A stretch of 64,000 nucleotides of DNA from Actinomycetes bacterium. Lineage in GTDB: Bacteria; Actinomycetota; Acidimicrobiia; Acidimicrobiales; Acidimicrobiaceae. Position 1 is the stretch's first letter. Every line of letters begins with the position of its first letter. The stretch lies in the NCBI GenBank assembly GCA_021822605.1, contig JAKAQL010000002.1, positions 1 through 64,000 of the forward strand, written 5' to 3'. Shown piece by piece: positions 2,768 through 63,371 of this stretch. Below the pieces are notes generated by a model, which was not told the origin of the DNA, searched no databases, and saw nothing but the letters and a program-made list of their open reading frames with translations. A program made the translations under genes and the position numbers.

Positions 2768-5771
<3,004 letters not shown>

Positions 5772-51288: not shown

Positions 51289-52062
51289 GTGCGATTTGCA
51301 ACCTGGAACGTCAACTCGCTTCGCGCGAGGCGTGAGTTGGTCGCCCAGTGGCTCCGCGAGCATCAACCAGACGTCCTTTGTCTGCAGGAGACAAAGGTGA
51401 AGGATGCTGAGTTTCCGGAGGATCTCTTCGAGGACGCCGGCTACCACGTTGTCCACTGGGGCGTATCTGCCTGGAACGGAGTCGCATTGGTGACCCGTGA
51501 GCCGGTCGAGCAGTTCGGGCGTGGGATCGTTGACGAAGATGAAGAGGCGCGCTGTATCGTAGGGGTTGTCGAGGGTATTCATATCTTCTCGGTGTATGTC
51601 CCCAACGGTCGGGCCCTGGACGATCCTCACTATGTCTATAAACTGGAGTGGCTCGACTCGCTTCGTGAACGTGCGATCGCAGAGATGGAACTTGGCCCAG
51701 TGATCATCGCGGGGGATTTCAATATCGCACCTACTGATGCAGATGTCTACGACCGAGCTGCTCTCGAGGGTGCCACCCATGTCAGTGAACCCGAACGGTT
51801 GGCGCTGCGGAGAATACTCGATCTCGGCTTGTTTGATTGTGGGGCGACTCTCTCGGACCCGGCCGAAGGGCCTCACTTCACTTGGTGGGACTATCGTCAA
51901 GGAGCTTTTCGACGTGGTATGGGTATGCGTATTGACTTAGTCCTGGCCTCGGAGTCACTTCGTGCGAGTGTGCGCTCGGTAGCGGTCGATCGACTAGCTC
52001 GCGCCGCTCCCAAACCATCGGATCATGCGCCGGTCGTGGTGGAGTTCGAGCACAGGAGCTAG
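51289..52062 (+). CDS. xth: Exodeoxyribonuclease III
   Basis: An AP endonuclease/3'-5' exonuclease of 257 residues. FATWNVNSLRARR, CLQETKV, VYVPNGRAL, IIAGDFNIAPTDADV, RIDLVLAS and PSDHAPVVVEF match the Xth family in order. Start is the GTG at 51289, one base after the fabZ-like stop; the ORF track start at 51184 lies inside that gene. Base-excision repair. Confidence 0.94.
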   Translation: MRFATWNVNSLRARRELVAQWLREHQPDVLCLQETKVKDAEFPEDLFEDAGYHVVHWGVSAWNGVALVTREPVEQFGRGIVDEDEEARCIVGVVEGIHIFSVYVPNGRALDDPHYVYKLEWLDSLRERAIAEMELGPVIIAGDFNIAPTDADVYDRAALEGATHVSEPERLALRRILDLGLFDCGATLSDPAEGPHFTWWDYRQGAFRRGMGMRIDLVLASESLRASVRSVAVDRLARAAPKPSDHAPVVVEFEHRS

Positions 52063-53912
52063 CGAACTCGACTGAGCTCGCCCCAGAGGCGATCGATAAG
52101 TTCTGTTGACTCTCTCAAAAGTGGAGTAGTCACCGCCGCGGCGACCGATTCTCGATCGGAGGGATGGGAGCGAGAGAGCTTACGCAGATCGGAATCTGAG
52201 AGGACAAGATAGGAGGCGAGCTGACGCTCCTTGCCGACGGTGACGCGCCAACGATCGAGCCGTGTCGCAACGGAGGGGTTGTCAAGTGAGTGCAGAATGC
52301 GCGCCCGTGGCTCTGCCCCCTTGATATCGAGGTGAGCGAGCATCGACGATGGTCCGCGACTCGGTCTTGACCAGCTGATGGCGAGAGAGTCCGTCGCTCT
52401 TGTCATCGCAACGTATAGAAGCCGTTGCTCTTCGGCGAGTGCCTCCGCCGAGAGCCCGTGGCGTGACGGATAGCTTTTATCGCCAATACCCACAAGGTGT
52501 ACGTGGTGCCATTGGAGACCCTTTGCGCGATGGAAGGTGGTAATGCTCACCGCGTCTACCCCCTTCACCTGCAGTCCTCGCAGTAGCTCTTCGAGAGCAA
52601 AGTGATCGGAACGGGGATCCTGCCTGCGTAGTTCATTAGCAACCTCAAGCAGTATCCGTAGGTTGGTGGTCCGCTGTGGGGTTGATGAGATCAGTGTCTC
52701 CTCAACTATGTCGCAGATCTCCGTGATCTGGAGTCGTTCCATTCGCGCCCTTCGCATCAGCTCGATCACCTCCGGTGCTGAGGCGAGCGGAGTAAGGCCA
52801 AGGACGCTGTGGGGGATATCGAAACGACGAAAGGCGTCCTCGACAGGGGACAGTTGACGAATCGTTCGCGCAAGAATCGCCATTGAGGAGTAAGGGATGC
52901 CGCGATGATGCAGTTCTACTACCTTTCTGGCTACCTGCTGAGCCTCCGCCGTGACCGAGTCCGCCCCGACGAGGTCCGGAGCCTGACCCCCTTGACGATG
53001 GGCTCGGGCGTTCACCCCCAGGTCATCGGTGGTGATAGGACCGGCAGCTGCGACGAGGGCAGCGGTGCTGCGGTAGTTGGTCGAGAGTGTGACACGGGTG
53101 AGAGTCGGGATACGGCTTGGAAGTCGGGTCATCAGCGCCGGATCCGAACCGTTCCAGCCGTAGATCGATTGGTTTGGATCGCCGACGACGGTGAGTCCAG
53201 AGAGGTCCTCACCCATCCACCGCTCGATGAAGCGGAGTTGAAGAGGGTTGACATCCTGAAACTCGTCGATGTAGACCCATCGTGCCTGGAGTCGGAGTGC
53301 CTCGCCGACGCCGTCACTGCGTCCAACGACATCCGCCGCCAGGCGCACTACGTCGGTGAGGTCCATCAGGCGTTGGCGCGCTTTGGCGCGCTCGAGCGTT
53401 GCCAAAACGGTGATGAGTTCGGTGGGGTTGGGAAGGGCGATGAGCTCGGGACTAGCTTTGAGGCTTTCAGCATCGTGGCCAAGAGAGCGGAGACGTTCGA
53501 TCTCACCCATCACGCTACGGCGGCGCGCCTCAGTGAGGTGTAACCCTAGGTCGCTAAGGAGGACGTTTGCGTCGCTGATGAGATGGGGGAGCGGCCTGTT
53601 GAGCATGGCATAACCCTCGCGGACCAACCCAAGGGCGAGCGAGTGAAAGGTGCCGCATGCTGGTGCTGGTCCGTCCAGGAGGCCGTAGAGACGCCGTGAG
53701 ACCTCCCATGCGGCTGCTCGCGTGAAACTGATCGCTACCGTCTGCGTGCTGCGGTTGGCCTGAGTGGTGATCTGGTAGGCGATCCTGTGGGTGATGACGC
53801 GGGTTTTGCCTGAGCCAGCCCCAGCGACGATGAGCAATGGCGCTGGTGCTGTGACCGCAGCTCGCTGTTCGGCGCTCAAACCCTCCAGGAGTTGTTCCGG
53901 AGCTGTCATCAT
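52059..53912 (-). CDS. UvrD/Rep-type helicase (UvrD2-like)
   Basis: A superfamily 1A DNA helicase of 617 residues. GAGSGKTRVITHRI is Walker A, YIDEFQDVNPLQL motif II, GDPNQSIYGWNG motif III, STNYRST motif IV, TTFHRAKGLQWHHV motif V and LLYVAMTRATD motif VI. The tail RWRVTVGKERQLASYLVLSDSDLRKL resembles a short HRDC domain, as in mycobacterial UvrD2. It follows the radical SAM gene with no gap, so they are probably cotranscribed. Confidence 0.92.
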   Translation of the reverse strand: MMTAPEQLLEGLSAEQRAAVTAPAPLLIVAGAGSGKTRVITHRIAYQITTQANRSTQTVAISFTRAAAWEVSRRLYGLLDGPAPACGTFHSLALGLVREGYAMLNRPLPHLISDANVLLSDLGLHLTEARRRSVMGEIERLRSLGHDAESLKASPELIALPNPTELITVLATLERAKARQRLMDLTDVVRLAADVVGRSDGVGEALRLQARWVYIDEFQDVNPLQLRFIERWMGEDLSGLTVVGDPNQSIYGWNGSDPALMTRLPSRIPTLTRVTLSTNYRSTAALVAAAGPITTDDLGVNARAHRQGGQAPDLVGADSVTAEAQQVARKVVELHHRGIPYSSMAILARTIRQLSPVEDAFRRFDIPHSVLGLTPLASAPEVIELMRRARMERLQITEICDIVEETLISSTPQRTTNLRILLEVANELRRQDPRSDHFALEELLRGLQVKGVDAVSITTFHRAKGLQWHHVHLVGIGDKSYPSRHGLSAEALAEEQRLLYVAMTRATDSLAISWSRPSRGPSSMLAHLDIKGAEPRARILHSLDNPSVATRLDRWRVTVGKERQLASYLVLSDSDLRKLSRSHPSDRESVAAAVTTPLLRESTELIDRLWGELSRVR

Positions 53913-55262
53913 CTAGTGAGGTGCTGCTGGAGCCGCACAGCAGAACCAGGGTTCGCTCATAACGGCGGTGCTCGGCGCGCTCACCTTGGGAGTGCGGACA
54001 CACTGAGCAGAGAGGCCGTTTGCCTCATAGACCGCCGTGACGATCTGGGCGAAGGTGGTCTCGAAGCTGTCCTCACCGGCCTGGGCGGCTAGCTGATAGA
54101 GCCGATCGCGGAGACGAGGTAGACGTTCATCCTGGTAACGAACGGTATAGCCCATGACGCTGGCGTCGTAGGGGCCAAAGTCGGTCTCGTTGACCGGCAA
54201 CAGTGAGTTGGTGGGGGTGAGCAGTTCGATCGAGTACTGGATAGGTTCTACCACCTGAACGAGGTCTGATTCGACGATGAAGTCAACGATGTCTACCAGG
54301 TCGCCCATCGTGGTCCACGGGGTAAACGGCACGAAGGTCGGATGCATGGCGACGCCGTTGGCGTAGAGCAAATCTCTGGCGACTGACACGTCGGCTGCGG
54401 TGTGACCCTTGTCGAGGTGAGCGAGAACGTCGTCATTGAGACTCTCGACGGCGGAGATCACGAAGTTGACGTGACTCGCCGCCAACGTTGAGAGGAGGTC
54501 TCGATGGCGAAGAATCTCAGAGATTTTGGTGGTGATGTCGAAGGTGACCCACGGTGCCTTCTGAGCCAAGGTGGTGAGGACCTTCAGCGAGTGCTTCGGA
54601 GCGTTGAGGAAGTCAGGATCTCCAAAACTGAGATGCTGGGCACCAGCTTCGATCTGCGCGAGACCGTCCGCGATGACCGCCTCGGCATCGTTGATGGCAA
54701 TTCTCCCGTTCCAAATGGCAGCCACCGGACAATGGAGGCACCGATGTCGGCAGCCTACCGAGGTTTCAAGGTAGCCAGTGACAAGGTCTTGGTTGGCAAT
54801 CCTGACGCTGCGATAGCTATCGAGCCCCATGAGCGGTGTCCGATTGACACGGTACGCTCGTCGACCCGTCGCCTTTGGAATGCCAGGCTGGGCAGAGACG
54901 GAAGGGTGCTGTACCAGTGTCGCAAGTTCAGCAGCGGTAGCTCGGTTCAGCCAGAGTGCCGCCGGTGGATCCTGCAGTGATTCCTTCAACACGGTGGCAT
55001 AGAGCCCCACCACGATCAGCTGTCGTTCTGGTTGATCGTGATCAAGGGAGGCGAGCAGGTCCCTGGCGACGAGAGCGCCGGTCAACATCGGTGCGGTGAG
55101 GATGACCCGTGAAGCACGATTGATCGCTTCGATGGCGACTGAGAGTGGAGTCTTTGCCATGTCCAAAACCTCAAGGGAGCCCTCAGGTAGTTCAGCGGCG
55201 ACCTCGGCGGCAAGCTGGGGTTGGTGGCCGAGTTCGTAGGTGGAGATGAAGAGCACAGACAT
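53913..55262 (-). CDS. Radical SAM protein with CCAAP tail (CUAEP/CCAEP-tail type)
   Basis: A 449-residue radical SAM protein. The cluster motif is GCRHRCLHCPV (CxxxCxxC). N-terminal residues 1-140 resemble a Rossmann/B12-binding-like domain. The extreme C-terminus is SEPWFCCAAPAAPH. I recall an NCBIfam family 'CUAEP/CCAEP-tail radical SAM (seleno)protein', in which the tail has adjacent Cys-Cys or Cys-Sec. Here both codons are cysteine (TGC TGT). The function of this family is not known. It follows the ATP-grasp gene after nine bases and precedes the helicase. Confidence 0.8.
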   Translation of the reverse strand: MSVLFISTYELGHQPQLAAEVAAELPEGSLEVLDMAKTPLSVAIEAINRASRVILTAPMLTGALVARDLLASLDHDQPERQLIVVGLYATVLKESLQDPPAALWLNRATAAELATLVQHPSVSAQPGIPKATGRRAYRVNRTPLMGLDSYRSVRIANQDLVTGYLETSVGCRHRCLHCPVAAIWNGRIAINDAEAVIADGLAQIEAGAQHLSFGDPDFLNAPKHSLKVLTTLAQKAPWVTFDITTKISEILRHRDLLSTLAASHVNFVISAVESLNDDVLAHLDKGHTAADVSVARDLLYANGVAMHPTFVPFTPWTTMGDLVDIVDFIVESDLVQVVEPIQYSIELLTPTNSLLPVNETDFGPYDASVMGYTVRYQDERLPRLRDRLYQLAAQAGEDSFETTFAQIVTAVYEANGLSAQCVRTPKVSAPSTAVMSEPWFCCAAPAAPH

Positions 55263-55271
55263 AAGACCAGT

Positions 55272-56504
55272 CTACTGGTCAGAGTCCTCAGCGACAGGGT
55301 CGATGACGATGGTGAGGTGGGCGCTCGCCACAGCGAGGGAATGGCTCACGCTGGTGTGCGTCAACCCTTCTGCGAAAATGAAGCCAAGATAGCGATCGGT
55401 GAGAGGTGGCGGATAGACCAAGGTTCCTGGATTGACGGTGATCTCGACGCCTGTGATACCGCTGGTCGCCAGAGCCATATCGATACCCCTGACCTCGCGA
55501 AAAGTTCCCATCCTTGGCGTGGGGATCATATAGATGCCGACTGACCTATTGTGGCGTCGAATGGCGCTCCGATCTCCAAGAGCCCGTTGCAAAATGATAT
55601 CCTCAAGGCGCTGTCCATCACCGAACTGAATCGCTGCGGAGCAGCGACCGCCAATCGATCGTGGAGCGAGCTCCAGGATGGTCGCGCGCCCATTGGTAAG
55701 CCGTAGTTCCGCATGAACGGGCGTGTCTGCCAATCCAAGCGCACGAGCACCACGTTCTACCGCGTTCGTGAGTTCTCGTTGCTGTCCGGGTGCGAGCTTG
55801 GCTGGCCCGAGATAGGTCGACTCCCAAAAGTAAGGACCCTCGCCGATATCGGGTTTGGCAAAGATCATCAGGACTTCGAGATCCTCGCCGTTGAGAATGC
55901 CCTCGACGGCGAACTCGGGCCCCTCGACGTAGCTCTCGAGCAGTAGCGGTGCTGTCGGGTCGATGGCATCCTTGAGGATCTTCAGATCCTGCGCGAGGGT
56001 GGTGTTGGTAACCCGGATGACACCGCGAGAGGCCGTTTCATGCGGTGGCTTCACTATGAAGCTCTCCCCAAGGCCAGCAACGATCGCATCGATTTCGTAT
56101 TTGCTGACGAGCGAAAGGGACCCAAGCGTGGTGACCATGTACTTGGGCTGGCTGAGTTCGGCCTGGCCAAGTACCTCTCGAAGTGAGAGCTTGTCGACGG
56201 CACGCTCGACGGCTTGGGCTTTGCCGATCGTGAGACCGAGTTGGTCGCTAAGGGTTGCCGCGAGGCGCGTAGAGGTTTCGTCGATGCCGATCACGAGCGT
56301 TGGTGCGAGGTCGAAGAGGGTGTTGACGAGGAACGCCAACTCTTCCGGGGGTGGCGACATGCTGCTGACATGGAGACCGACGTCCCCGATGGGAACACTA
56401 GCGTCGGTGAGCAGGGTGAGTCGCATGCCTGTCCGCGCCGCCGCCTGTAGAAAGGCGTCGGCGCGGTAGCTCTCAGCCGGTACGACGAGGACGATGTGTT
56501 GCAT
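55272..56504 (-). CDS. ATP-grasp enzyme paired with the radical SAM protein
   Basis: A 410-residue ATP-grasp ligase-like protein of the BL00235/CARNS1 type. FIVKPPHETASRGVIRV is the ATP-binding loop, ESYVEGPEFAVEGIL and the metal site ILELAPRSIGGRCSAAI follow. Such enzymes join an acid to an amine through an acyl-phosphate. Substrate unknown. Pairing with the radical SAM gene suggests a shared biosynthetic or repair task. Confidence 0.87.
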   Translation of the reverse strand: MQHIVLVVPAESYRADAFLQAAARTGMRLTLLTDASVPIGDVGLHVSSMSPPPEELAFLVNTLFDLAPTLVIGIDETSTRLAATLSDQLGLTIGKAQAVERAVDKLSLREVLGQAELSQPKYMVTTLGSLSLVSKYEIDAIVAGLGESFIVKPPHETASRGVIRVTNTTLAQDLKILKDAIDPTAPLLLESYVEGPEFAVEGILNGEDLEVLMIFAKPDIGEGPYFWESTYLGPAKLAPGQQRELTNAVERGARALGLADTPVHAELRLTNGRATILELAPRSIGGRCSAAIQFGDGQRLEDIILQRALGDRSAIRRHNRSVGIYMIPTPRMGTFREVRGIDMALATSGITGVEITVNPGTLVYPPPLTDRYLGFIFAEGLTHTSVSHSLAVASAHLTIVIDPVAEDSDQ

Positions 56505-56612: not shown

Positions 56613-57239
56613 ATGGGAGCGATGAGCGATTTTAGAGTTACTGATGCAGCGGTGGGAGTCGTGCTGGATGCGCTGGCTGATGAGGGTACGACTGACGCAC
56701 TGGGGCTTTGGGTAGAGGTCGCTGGCAACGATGGGACTTCATTCATGTATGACGTCTATTTCCAAGAGTTGGCCCAGGTCGATTCCGAGGACTTACGACT
56801 GCGTTTTGGCGAACTGAGTGTGGTCATCCCTCGGGATTCCATCTCTCGGCTCGCCGGGGCAACTCTTGAGGTCGGTGCTGACGGGGAGCTCGCCATCACC
56901 AACCCGAACACTCCAACCCCTGAGGCAACGGACCTGCCTGATCTGGGACCGGAGGCACTCGCCAACGATCTCGCCCTCCGCGTCAACGCTATTCTCGAGG
57001 AGCAGGTCAACCCGGCGATCGCCGCTCATGGAGGTTACGCCGAGCTAGTAGGAGTCGTTGAGGAGCGTGCCTACGTTCTCATGGGTGGGGGCTGTCAGGG
57101 TTGTGGCTTGGCCGCCATGACGCTGTCACAAGGCATCGCGACAGCGATTCAGGATGCGGTCCCAGAGATTATCGACGTGGTTGATGTGACGAACCATGCC
57201 GCTGGCAATAATCCTTACTATCAGCCTGCCAAGAAGTAG
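56613..57239 (+). CDS. NfuA-like iron-sulfur carrier
   Basis: A 208-residue protein with an N-terminal degenerate IscA/HesB-like domain (about 1-95, lacking its cysteines) and a C-terminal NifU domain. The NifU part shows VNPAIAAHGGYAEL and GGGCQGCGLAAMTL, the CxxC that binds a 4Fe-4S cluster. It delivers clusters to apoproteins. Divergent from the ATP-grasp/radical SAM operon, so it could supply that enzyme. Confidence 0.87.
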   Translation: MGAMSDFRVTDAAVGVVLDALADEGTTDALGLWVEVAGNDGTSFMYDVYFQELAQVDSEDLRLRFGELSVVIPRDSISRLAGATLEVGADGELAITNPNTPTPEATDLPDLGPEALANDLALRVNAILEEQVNPAIAAHGGYAELVGVVEERAYVLMGGGCQGCGLAAMTLSQGIATAIQDAVPEIIDVVDVTNHAAGNNPYYQPAKK

Positions 57240-60116: not shown

Positions 60117-60659
60117 CTACCAGCCAGCTCCAGCCGCCGTGCTGTGCCAGCCGCTGCCAGCGGTGGTGCTAAGACTAGGCGCGGCTGCACACGTTGGTGC
60201 TGCGGTTGAAGATGGCATGCTGTAGTAGTAGGTCCCTGCTCCAGTTCCCTGCGCGACATCTTCGATTCCAAACATTGTTCCAGATGCCGCTGCTTCGCTG
60301 AGACAGACGTAGACTGGAGGGGTTGTGGCTGACCCACCTGTGGTGACGGTGATCGCTGCAGGCGTGGTCGTGCTACCGCTCGTACTAGCAGTGAGTGCTT
60401 TCGTGTAGGCGGGATCGAGCTGAATCAGTGCGGCGCTGTCGGCGTACTGTTGGTTGTTGGTATAGGCTACCGATTCTGAGGTCAAGAGGTTCCGTAGGTC
60501 GGTCTCTGCGGCCTTGTTCTGGGCCGAGGTGCGGGCTCCGAGGAAGGTTGGGATCGCGATCGCGGCGAGGATGCCCATGATCAGGATGACCACCATCAAC
60601 TCGATGAGTGTGAACCCGGACTCATCACTTTTTGTCAATTTCCGATAAATCTGAGACAT
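60117..60659 (-). CDS. Type IV pilin-like prepilin
   Basis: A 180-residue prepilin. The basic leader (SQIYRKLTKSDESG) ends at the cleavage point ESG|FTLIELMVVILIMGILAAIAIPTF, with Phe at +1 and Glu at +5. The mature part has a long Ser/Thr/Ala-rich region and two cysteines near the end (VCLSE, PTCAAAP) that may form a loop. I start at ATG 60659 with AAGGAG upstream; the ORF track uses 60695. Divergent from the pilD gene that would process it. Confidence 0.92.
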   Translation of the reverse strand: MSQIYRKLTKSDESGFTLIELMVVILIMGILAAIAIPTFLGARTSAQNKAAETDLRNLLTSESVAYTNNQQYADSAALIQLDPAYTKALTASTSGSTTTPAAITVTTGGSATTPPVYVCLSEAAASGTMFGIEDVAQGTGAGTYYYSMPSSTAAPTCAAAPSLSTTAGSGWHSTAAGAGW

Positions 60660-60845
60660 CCTTTTCTCCTTGCTGGCTTTCACGTCTCCGTGCACCGGTG
60701 TTCCGGTACCCCCTCTGCTTCGGCGCGCTGGGAGTGAAAACTTGAATGAAATTAACGCTAGGAGTGAGAATTATGTGTTGTGGGGGCCGACTGCTTGCTT
60801 GGGCACCATTCAACTCGACAGCGATTCCGTCCGAAGGCTCTAACC

Positions 60846-61592
60846 ATGGGTGTGGTAATCGGTCTTGTCTTTGGCCTGATCGGCGGATCGGCGCTGACGG
60901 CGCTGACCTTCCGGGTCCCTGCAGGTCTCCCGCTGGTGATGGATCGGTCAAAGTGCCCATCCTGTGCGCACCCGATTCGGGCTCGCGACAACGTGCCCGT
61001 GTTTGCCTATCTTTGGCTGCGAGGAAGATGTCGTGATTGTTCCGTGTCCATCCCCCTGCGTTACCCCCTGACCGAGCTTGCCGGTGGCGCGATCGGAGTG
61101 ATCGCCGCAATGTACCCGGTGGATTCGGTCGACAAGGTTAGCTGCGGTCTCGCACTCCTCGTTGGTCTTGGGGCGGCCTTGATCGATCAGAAGACCTACC
61201 GAATCCCGAATTCGCTCACCTACCCAACAGCAGTGCTTCTCGTGCTGCTCGGATTTGTGAATGCCTTGTTCTCTGGGCATTGGAGGGCCTTCACCGTCAC
61301 CGTAGTCCTGGCGATAGCGGTGCTCGCCTTCTTCGTTCTTCTGCGCTTGGTTTCGCGTGGTGGCATGGGCCTCGGCGATGCGAAGCTGGCGGCAGTGTTA
61401 GTTCTTGGGGTCGCTCCGTTCGGTGCCTGGAGTGTTGCGGTAGCCATTCTGGTGAGCTTCTTTGTTGGATCGGTGGTTGGGATCGCCTTGATCCTTGCGA
61501 AGCGGGCTAGCCTCCGGGCTCAACTGCCGTTTGGCCCGTTTCTCACCTTTGGGTTTGTTATTACTACTCTTGGTGTGGGTATTTTTCACTAG
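60846..61592 (+). CDS. Prepilin peptidase and N-methyltransferase (PilD-like)
   Basis: A 248-residue membrane aspartyl protease. The cytoplasmic zinc-type cysteines are CPSC and CRDC; the catalytic aspartates are in LGAALIDQKTYRIPN and GMGLGDAKLAAVL. Several membrane helices surround them. It cuts and N-methylates prepilins such as the one encoded next door. Start ATG 60846. Confidence 0.93.
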   Translation: MGVVIGLVFGLIGGSALTALTFRVPAGLPLVMDRSKCPSCAHPIRARDNVPVFAYLWLRGRCRDCSVSIPLRYPLTELAGGAIGVIAAMYPVDSVDKVSCGLALLVGLGAALIDQKTYRIPNSLTYPTAVLLVLLGFVNALFSGHWRAFTVTVVLAIAVLAFFVLLRLVSRGGMGLGDAKLAAVLVLGVAPFGAWSVAVAILVSFFVGSVVGIALILAKRASLRAQLPFGPFLTFGFVITTLGVGIFH

Positions 61593-61664
61593 CAGCGCAT
61601 TTACGGGTCAACTTTCTCGGCGTTCTGGTCGATAGGCTCTTGGGAGTTTAGCGAGGATTCAAGG

Positions 61665-63371
61665 ATGGAAAAACTCATACTCTTAGAGATCGGAGCATTC
61701 TCCATCAAGGCGTGCGAGATCGAGGTAGGTCGGCGGGCACGCCCACCGCTTTGGCTCGCACATCGCGTCTTACCCGATGGTGCCGGAGAGCATCCGGAGA
61801 GGGTAGTCGAGACCCTTCGTGGCCTCCTCCATGATGCAGGAACCCGAACGAAGGCGACTCGCCTGATCGTGACCGACCCGGATCTCGTCGTTAGAAGTCT
61901 CAATGTGCCGAGTTCAGACAGGAACGAACTCGAGATGACTTTTGGCTTCGCCATGACAGAGGTACTGCCACTTCCACTCGACGAGCTCGTAGTCGACTAC
62001 GAGACTGCTACCAAAGGGCGGTCCGCAAACCCAAATGTCATAATGGCTGGAGCTCCGAAGGCCATGATCGCTAAGGCTATCGATGTGGCGGAACGCAGCG
62101 GCCTACGTGTCGATTGGGTCGATGTCGGCCCGTTAGCAGCAGCTCGTGCTGTGAGTGCACTTTCACGGACTGAGGGCGATGGTTACTACCTAGTAGTGGT
62201 GGGTGCAACCACCACTACCATCGAGGTGGTCGTTGGCGATCAGCCGCAGCTCGTTCGCTCCATCAGGATGGGCGGCGAACTGATTACGCAGGAGATCGCG
62301 CGACGTCTGGAGGTCGCCTACGAGGCGGCAGAGGGTCTCAAGCGAGTGGTCGCCCTCCGAGTACCTGAGGAGAGCGACCAGCTGGATGGCTTCGTGACGG
62401 CGGATGGCATCGTCGCCGATGGCGTGCGTTCCATCGTTCAAGAGGTTGCCTCCTCGATCGATTACTTTGCTATTCAACGGGGCTACACCGATATCGACCG
62501 ACTGGTCCTCGTTGGTGGATCGTCGGCAGTCGAACAACTTGGCGTGGAGTTGGGTGACAAGCTCCAGCTCAAAGTAGAGCGACCGGGACCGCGTCAGGTG
62601 TTGCGACTCATCGAGGCTGACTCCTTTGTCGAGGACTCAACCAGTAACTGGGTCGAGATGACCGGCGCTGTGATGCGTGCACGCACCCACGAGAAGGGTG
62701 CCAAGCTCGTCAATCTTTTGCCTGCGCGGGTGCGGGCACGCCGTCAACGGCGACGTCAGTTCGCATTCCTGGGCGCGCTGGGTGCGGTGTTAGTGGGTGC
62801 GGGCGCACTGCTCACACTGCAGCGTTACCAACAGCTCCACCAGGCGCAGGAGGCACAAGCGTCGCTTGGGACCCAGCTCGGGGTGTTGACGGGGCAGATG
62901 TCTCGCTACGCACCGTATGGGACCCTTGCTGAGGGGGTTGCCACAGCGAGAGCGACACTCGCTCAACAGCTCAAGTCGTCGATTGATTTTCCACAACTGC
63001 TGGCGCAGATCGCTGGAGCTACTCCATCCGACTCGTGGCTGACGAGTCTGAGCATTCAGGCTCCGACAACCTCGACGGGGGGTACTTCGGGGCTAGCTGT
63101 CAGCTTTAGTCTTGAGGGCTGCTCGCAGCTCGCTCCTGCTCACTGGCTCAGCTCGATGAGTAGGCTCGATTTCTTAGCGAATCTCTGGGTCTCGTCATCA
63201 ACCCTTACTCCCTCGGGAAGCGGCGGGTCTTCGTCCTGTGGGGTCGGTGTACCCTCAGCCGAGATGGTTGAAGCTGGGATGACAACCTACCAGGGATCGG
63301 CCGTCATTTCGAATGACTTCGCCCAGTACCGTAGCACGTCCTACCTGCGGCAGCTGGGGGTGTCCTCGTGA
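61665..63371 (+). CDS. PilM-PilN fusion protein of the type IV pilus
   Basis: A 568-residue protein. Residues 1-340 are the actin-like PilM domain (LLEIGAFSIKACEIE, YYLVVVGATTTTIEVV, RLVLVGGSSAVEQLG). From about 345 the PilN part begins with KLVNLLPARVRARR, the conserved N-terminal NLLP box by which separate PilN proteins bind PilM. A membrane helix (FAFLGALGAVLVGAGALLTL) and an extracytoplasmic coiled region follow. In most bacteria these are two genes, so the complex is covalently joined here. Overlaps the next gene as GTGA. Confidence 0.85.
   Translation: MEKLILLEIGAFSIKACEIEVGRRARPPLWLAHRVLPDGAGEHPERVVETLRGLLHDAGTRTKATRLIVTDPDLVVRSLNVPSSDRNELEMTFGFAMTEVLPLPLDELVVDYETATKGRSANPNVIMAGAPKAMIAKAIDVAERSGLRVDWVDVGPLAAARAVSALSRTEGDGYYLVVVGATTTTIEVVVGDQPQLVRSIRMGGELITQEIARRLEVAYEAAEGLKRVVALRVPEESDQLDGFVTADGIVADGVRSIVQEVASSIDYFAIQRGYTDIDRLVLVGGSSAVEQLGVELGDKLQLKVERPGPRQVLRLIEADSFVEDSTSNWVEMTGAVMRARTHEKGAKLVNLLPARVRARRQRRRQFAFLGALGAVLVGAGALLTLQRYQQLHQAQEAQASLGTQLGVLTGQMSRYAPYGTLAEGVATARATLAQQLKSSIDFPQLLAQIAGATPSDSWLTSLSIQAPTTSTGGTSGLAVSFSLEGCSQLAPAHWLSSMSRLDFLANLWVSSSTLTPSGSGGSSSCGVGVPSAEMVEAGMTTYQGSAVISNDFAQYRSTSYLRQLGVSS

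What the first reader, a model, noticed from the sequence alone, without database searches (positions are those of the whole stretch)
53913..56504. ATP-grasp plus CCAAP-tail radical SAM pair, an uncharacterised enzyme unit
The sequence shows a BL00235-type ATP-grasp gene nine bases before a radical SAM gene whose last residues are WFCCAAPAAPH. Adjacent cysteines at an exposed C-terminus recall the CUAEP/CCAEP-tail family (selenocysteine-cysteine variants), whose function is unknown as far as I know. Inference: the tail is a redox or persulfide-carrying arm, or itself a substrate, and the ATP-grasp enzyme joins or activates a small molecule. Divergent nfuA could supply Fe-S clusters, and the helicase gene follows without a gap.
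Basis: partly seen in the sequence, partly recalled or inferred. Interest (0 to 1): 0.75.

Follow-up and report, generated by a model that had tools for sequence, protein, structure and literature searches.

The report
Uncharacterised radical-SAM/ligase pair related to ArsL
Two neighbouring genes encode a conserved but uncharacterised enzyme pair, found in many bacterial phyla, that probably builds an unusual amino acid and joins it to another molecule; its nearest understood relative is ArsL, which makes the arsenic-containing antibiotic arsinothricin.

Summary
A BL00235-type ATP-grasp gene lies nine bases before a radical SAM gene ending WFCCAAPAAPH; nfuA is divergent and a UvrD-type helicase abuts. 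The pair is not chance: in 41 related genomes both genes share presence/absence and order, and a divergent-NfuA / ATP-grasp / radical-SAM cassette recurs in several phyla. The tail is Cys-Cys or Cys-Sec in every intact tail read; all 27 distinct UGA forms have a SECIS-like hairpin. The window protein is a divergent relative of NCBIfam NF040546 (359.8 bits, cut-off 500), with CCAAP for CCAEP. [quoted passage not shown] several ArsL plasmid clusters also carry a BL00235-like ATP-grasp. Ars genes are rare near CCAEP cassettes; NfuA, once a whole SUF operon, and lipoate/PDH genes are found instead. Best reading: ArsL-like C-heteroatom bond formation on an atom held by the tail, then amino-acid ligation, NfuA serving the Fe-S cluster. 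The chemistry is inference (0.35); the cassette is well supported. The helicase is lineage-specific, probably incidental.

The parts
53913..55262 (-). Radical SAM protein, 449 aa: N-terminal Rossmann (B12-binding-like, no DxHxxG motif) plus radical SAM barrel plus Cys-Cys tail; divergent relative of NF040546, distant homologue of ArsL
54729..54752 (-). Radical SAM CX3CX2C motif (C171, C175, C178), invariant in the family
53928..53948 (-). Tail WFCCAAP (residues 439-445); C441 and C442 invariant as Cys-Cys or Cys-Sec in relatives
55272..56504 (-). ATP-grasp ligase, 410 aa, nearest solved structure L-amino acid ligase BL00235 (3vot); LAL_C2 C-terminal domain
56613..57239 (+). NfuA-like Fe-S carrier (NifU domain with GGCQGCG), divergent; conserved partner of the pair
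52059..53912 (-). UvrD/Rep-type helicase abutting the radical SAM gene; conserved neighbour only inside the window's own family, probably not part of the function

Best explanation
A two-enzyme biosynthetic unit with an Fe-S helper. The radical SAM enzyme is a relative of ArsL. [quoted passage not shown] The BL00235-type ATP-grasp enzyme then activates a carboxylate with ATP and couples it to an amine, giving a dipeptide or amide. NfuA supplies or restores the Fe-S cluster. Shown here: gene order, conservation, families, fold, tail, Cys/Sec exchange, homology to ArsL. Inferred: ACP transfer, identity of the acceptor atom, the order of the two steps, the role of NfuA.
For: The two genes co-occur in 41 genomes apart from one weak single hit each, and are neighbours in nearly all. 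ATP-grasp directly upstream on the same strand in 38 of 80 loci from several phyla; present in 28 of 43 loci with at least 4 kb on both sides, NfuA in 30 of 43; repeated in a sample of Actinobacteriota. One genome has both in a single open frame. Homology to ArsL over 86-88% of the query at 33-38% identity, with shared E-G-x-Q-P, CX3CX2C and paired tail cysteines; ArsL is predicted to transfer ACP to As(III) (PMC8552651), with a 2024 enzyme study cited in PMC12159101. ArsL clusters of Alicyclobacillus, Priestia, Pantoea and Klebsiella plasmids also carry an ATP-grasp; the Alicyclobacillus one has BL00235 as its best solved match. The gene follows a SUF operon in one Ignavibacteriales genome. 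AF2 model pLDDT 92, AprD4/OxsB-like fold.
Against: No activity is reported for any CUAEP/CCAEP protein in the papers held. The branch to ArsL is long (1.84 changes per site), so the reaction may differ; the closest folds (AprD4, OxsB) use a 5'-deoxyadenosyl radical. Ars-type genes were found in only 4 of 120 loci and ArsM does not track the family, so arsenic itself is unlikely as the general acceptor. ArsL-associated ATP-grasps are only about 20% identical to the window one. A third of the loci with good flanks lack the ATP-grasp nearby. The position of the tail relative to the cluster could not be measured.
Confidence: 0.35

Rival explanations
1. Same cassette, different radical: the enzyme makes a 5'-deoxyadenosyl radical and changes a carbon substrate; the Cys-Cys/Cys-Sec tail is a redox arm that delivers or removes electrons, as the C-terminal Cys-Sec of thioredoxin reductase does. 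The ligase then joins the product to an amino acid.
For: Closest folds are the 5'-deoxyadenosyl-radical enzymes AprD4 and OxsB; Cys/Sec exchange at one tail position with SECIS-like hairpins is typical of redox catalysis (established knowledge).
Against: The nearest sequence relative with a known reaction is ArsL, not these. The tail of ArsL also has paired cysteines.
Confidence: 0.3
2. A sulfur or Fe-S linked step: the enzyme consumes cluster sulfur or makes a small thiol/chelator used in Fe-S or lipoyl metabolism, and NfuA regenerates its cluster as it does for lipoyl synthase.
For: NfuA conserved across phyla; SUF operon in L108; LipB-LipA-PDH downstream in Chloroflexota and aceE next to the gene in some Acidimicrobiia.
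Against: Only five invariant cysteines, three for the SAM cluster and two in the tail, so the chain has no site for a full auxiliary cluster. The lipoate/PDH linkage is limited to two lineages.
Confidence: 0.15
3. An arsenic enzyme like ArsL, making an arsinothricin-type peptide.
For: ArsL homology and the shared ATP-grasp pairing; the window genome has an ArsM over cut-off.
Against: No ars operon, transporter or ArsN near the cassettes; ArsM over cut-off in only 5 of 26 family-bearing genomes; RCCLKC tail absent; ArsL model score 187 against a cut-off of 450.
Confidence: 0.08
4. Unrelated neighbours without a joint function.
For: Some loci lack the ATP-grasp within the flank.
Against: Matching presence/absence in 41 genomes (p about 1e-11 ignoring phylogeny), fixed order across phyla, one single-frame case.
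Confidence: 0.03

Closest known systems
CUAEP/CCAEP-tail radical SAM (seleno)protein, NCBIfam NF040546
   Same: Full-length match (residues 3-447 on positions 1-463 of 468), CX3CX2C, tail with paired Cys or Cys-Sec, same ATP-grasp and NfuA neighbours
   Different: The window protein scores 359.8, below the cut-off of 500; tail CCAAP not CCAEP; shortened after the tail; 11 CCAAP loci (window included) among the relatives read
ArsL (RCCLKC-tail), arsinothricin biosynthesis, NF040542
   Same: Homologous over 86-88% of the length at 33-38% identity (Nitrospira query), same N-terminal E-G-x-Q-P and SAM motifs, paired cysteines at the C-terminus; several ArsL clusters also have a BL00235-like ATP-grasp
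   Different: Tail RCCLKC; no ars operon near the window genes; 24-28% identity to the window protein; long separating branch
L-amino acid ligase BL00235 (PDB 3vot)
   Same: Best solved match of the ATP-grasp (2.6e-18 window, 6e-35 for the Nitrospira homologue), LAL_C2 domain, conserved ATP-grasp Lys/Glu/Arg positions
   Different: Conserved Cys in IGG-x-C, specific to the CCAEP-linked ligases in the alignment; substrates unknown
AprD4 / OxsB / MgmA type radical SAM fold (6fd2, 5ul4, 9ccb)
   Same: Rossmann domain followed by radical SAM barrel, Z 23-25 over 350-409 residues
   Different: 11-16% identity; no cobalamin DxHxxG motif; no Cys-Cys tail of this kind known to me there

Membership tests
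NF040546 CUAEP/CCAEP-tail radical SAM | Score over the curated cut-off (500 bits) | tested here: not met
   359.8 bits, E 2e-107; so a divergent relative, not a member by that rule
NF040546 CUAEP/CCAEP-tail radical SAM | C-terminal CUAEP or CCAEP tail | tested here: not met
   CCAAP: paired Cys and Pro kept, Glu replaced by Ala; the same in 11 loci of its clade
NF040546 CUAEP/CCAEP-tail radical SAM | Full-length alignment and tree position with the family | tested here: met
   Residues 3-447 aligned; groups with CCAEP sequences apart from ArsL (quick tree)
NF040542 ArsL | Score over cut-off 450 | tested here: not met
   187 bits; no better hit in the genome
NF040542 ArsL | RCCLKC tail | tested here: not met
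   Tail is WFCCAAP
NF040542 ArsL | Neighbouring ars genes (arsQ, arsM, arsR, arsN) | tested here: not met
   tblastn of ars-cluster proteins hits only 4 of 120 family loci (L047, L061, L098, L107); none of the four window neighbours is an ars gene
NF040542 ArsL | ACP transfer from SAM to As(III) | not testable with these tools
   Needs enzymology
L-amino acid ligase (BL00235-like) | ATP-grasp_4 plus LAL_C2 domains over gathering scores | tested here: met
   75.4 over 27 and 43.5 over 29.4 bits
L-amino acid ligase (BL00235-like) | Ligation of two amino acids | not testable with these tools
   Needs enzymology
Cobalamin-dependent radical SAM | Cobalamin-binding DxHxxG motif in the Rossmann domain | tested here: not met
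   No such motif in the N-terminal domain (sequence); cobalamin binding without the motif is not excluded
NfuA (TIGR03341) | Score over cut-off 269 and NifU CxxC domain | tested here: inconclusive
   91.4 bits against 269, but NifU domain 71 over 27 bits: NfuA-like

The most novel reading that the evidence does not exclude
A widespread, uncharted pathway in which an ArsL-like radical SAM enzyme forms a carbon-heteroatom bond (not on arsenic) on an atom held by a Cys-Sec/Cys-Cys tail, and a dedicated ligase turns the product into a peptide-like cofactor or thiol used in Fe-S or lipoyl metabolism.
Probability: 0.2. Interest if true: 0.9.

Novelty: new variant of a known kind. Interest (0 to 1): 0.58.

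Why it matters
A function-unknown selenoprotein/radical SAM family spread over many phyla gets a testable chemical hypothesis: its relation to ArsL and the repeated pairing with an amino-acid ligase point to a class of small molecules with a new carbon-heteroatom bond. A single SAM-cleavage assay would decide between the two leading mechanisms.

Tried and rejected
Literature: no held paper names CUAEP, NF040546 or RCCLKC, or links arsinothricin with ATP-grasp; two Haft papers on selenoproteins are not held. DUF169 has no known function in the papers opened. Arsenic as general substrate: ars genes rare near the family, ArsM not correlated. Helicase as a functional partner: adjacent only within the window's family. 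DUF169 as a core member: hits in about 14 of 26 family-bearing genomes and 4 of 15 others, and elsewhere in the window's genome, so at most accessory. The careful tree did not finish; the quick tree was used. Limits: genome-contig loci were found partly with the tail pattern itself, so tail conservation there is biased; the relatives set was found by the whole protein and is free of that bias, and the UGA forms cannot match the tail pattern. MAGs may be incomplete or mis-binned.

Full report
Observation. The radical SAM protein ends SEPWFCCAAPAAPH. NCBIfam gives NF040546 (CUAEP/CCAEP-tail) at 359.8 bits, under the cut-off of 500, and second ArsL (NF040542) at 187 bits. Pfam gives ATP-grasp_4 and LAL_C2 for the partner and a NifU domain for the nfuA-like protein.

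Recurrence. In 41 related genomes, strong hits to the radical SAM protein and to the ATP-grasp protein fall in the same 26 genomes, and in nearly all they are neighbours in the same order; exceptions are a contig break (G019) and a 3.3 kb gap (G032) (Fisher p about 1e-11 without correction for phylogeny). Profile searches of these loci show a recurring arrangement, NfuA divergent from ATP-grasp then radical SAM: of 43 loci with at least 4 kb on both sides, 28 have the ATP-grasp, 30 NfuA, 15 DUF169, 8 aceE and 7 LipA; 38 of the 80 have the ATP-grasp directly upstream on the same strand. Regions around 20 hits in other Actinobacteriota give the same picture. In genome G018 both proteins lie in one open frame, a fusion or an assembly error. 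The helicase is adjacent only in the window's own family.

Tail. In relatives found by full-length search, all 25 readable tails are WFCC[AS][AE]P or WFC-UGA-SEP. Among the 80 contig loci, 63 are Cys-Cys and 17 have UGA exactly at the second cysteine; this set is biased because the scan partly used the tail. All 27 distinct UGA forms have a hairpin in the stretch just after the UGA, most with a CAGUU or CAGGU loop on stems whose letters change between lineages, as a bacterial SECIS would. SelB over cut-off occurs in 10 of 14 UGA genomes and 7 of 22 Cys-Cys genomes (p 0.04); the window's genome has no SelB over cut-off and has the Cys-Cys form, while G008 of the same family has both SelB and UGA. 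The window's clade has CCAAP and a shortened end. Only five cysteines are invariant: three of the CX3CX2C and two of the tail.

Relationship to ArsL. A tblastn of plasmids with the Nitrospira homologue returns ArsL/RCCLKC-tail proteins at 33-38% identity over 86-88% of the query. Alignment shows shared E-G-x-Q-P near the N-terminus, the SAM motif, several acidic and Pro-Trp positions, and paired cysteines at the end. ArsL is described as transferring the 3-amino-3-carboxypropyl group of SAM to As(III) (PMC8552651; a 2024 study of the enzyme is cited in PMC12159101). ArsL clusters on Alicyclobacillus, Priestia, Pantoea and Klebsiella plasmids also contain an ATP-grasp gene, while the Pseudomonas arsQLM cluster does not. 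The Alicyclobacillus ATP-grasp best matches BL00235 among solved structures, as the CCAEP-associated ones do, though it is only about 20% identical to the window's. In a quick tree ArsL is a separate, long-branched group and the window protein lies in its own taxonomic family's clade.

Fold. AlphaFold2 with 46 family sequences gives pLDDT 92 and pTM 0.91. Best PDB matches are AprD4 (Z 25.4), OxsB (23.8), CysS and the methyl-coenzyme M reductase methylase MgmA (23.4): a Rossmann domain of the cobalamin-binding type, without its DxHxxG motif, then the radical SAM barrel.

Surroundings elsewhere. In an Ignavibacteriales genome the gene follows two SufB/D-type genes, an ABC ATPase, an aminotransferase class V (SufS-type), a NifU_N (SufU-type), a FeS_assembly_P and a HesB-like gene, and precedes NfuA and the ATP-grasp. 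In Chloroflexota the pair precedes LipB, LipA and pyruvate dehydrogenase; in some Acidimicrobiia aceE is next to the radical SAM gene. Ars-cluster proteins hit only 4 of 120 family loci, and ArsM does not follow the family among relatives.

Mechanism. Shown: a conserved pair with a conserved NfuA partner, a BL00235-type ligase, an ArsL-related radical SAM enzyme, and a Cys-Cys/Cys-Sec tail. Inferred: ACP transfer to a soft atom held by the tail, then ligation of the resulting amino acid. Precedents for paired C-terminal Cys/Sec arms (thioredoxin reductase; MerA, which hands Hg(II) on) and the methionine-containing dipeptides made by BL00235 are from my own knowledge. An ACP transfer would give a methionine- or glutamate-like amino acid, a fitting substrate for such a ligase. 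The main rival is deoxyadenosyl chemistry with a redox tail; the two differ in one measurable product, methylthioadenosine against deoxyadenosine.

Verdict. A divergent clade of a known, function-unknown family. The cassette and the ArsL link make it more interesting than a plain annotation; the chemistry is unproven.

Noticed in passing
L127 (G018:C61) about 3145-5709, also L010: ATP-grasp and radical SAM proteins lie in one open frame of about 890 aa with no stop between them: a possible natural fusion.
   Followed up: partly
L108:370-10944: The radical SAM gene sits at the end of a SUF-type operon, followed by NfuA, an alcohol dehydrogenase and the ATP-grasp gene.
   Followed up: yes
L042, L044, L045, L049, L052-L054, L065, L066; L067, L068, L079, L081: LipB-LipA-pyruvate dehydrogenase genes directly downstream in Chloroflexota; aceE divergent from the radical SAM gene in some Acidimicrobiia.
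   Followed up: partly
L032:6672-7490, L090:11623-12324 and about 8 further loci: An unknown protein of 230-310 aa with several cysteines, without Pfam match in the one tested, downstream of the radical SAM gene.
   Followed up: partly
L115-L118 (Alicyclobacillus, Priestia, Pantoea, Klebsiella plasmids): Ars clusters with ArsL plus an ATP-grasp (and mostly ArsM), suggesting peptide-type organoarsenicals beyond arsinothricin.
   Followed up: partly
G000:C6:4711-5328: The window's genome carries a DUF169 gene away from this locus, although DUF169 is a frequent neighbour of the cassette elsewhere.
   Followed up: partly
window 60117-63371: Type IV pilin-like protein, prepilin peptidase-like protein and a PilM-like protein near each other, judged from sequence only.
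   Followed up: no
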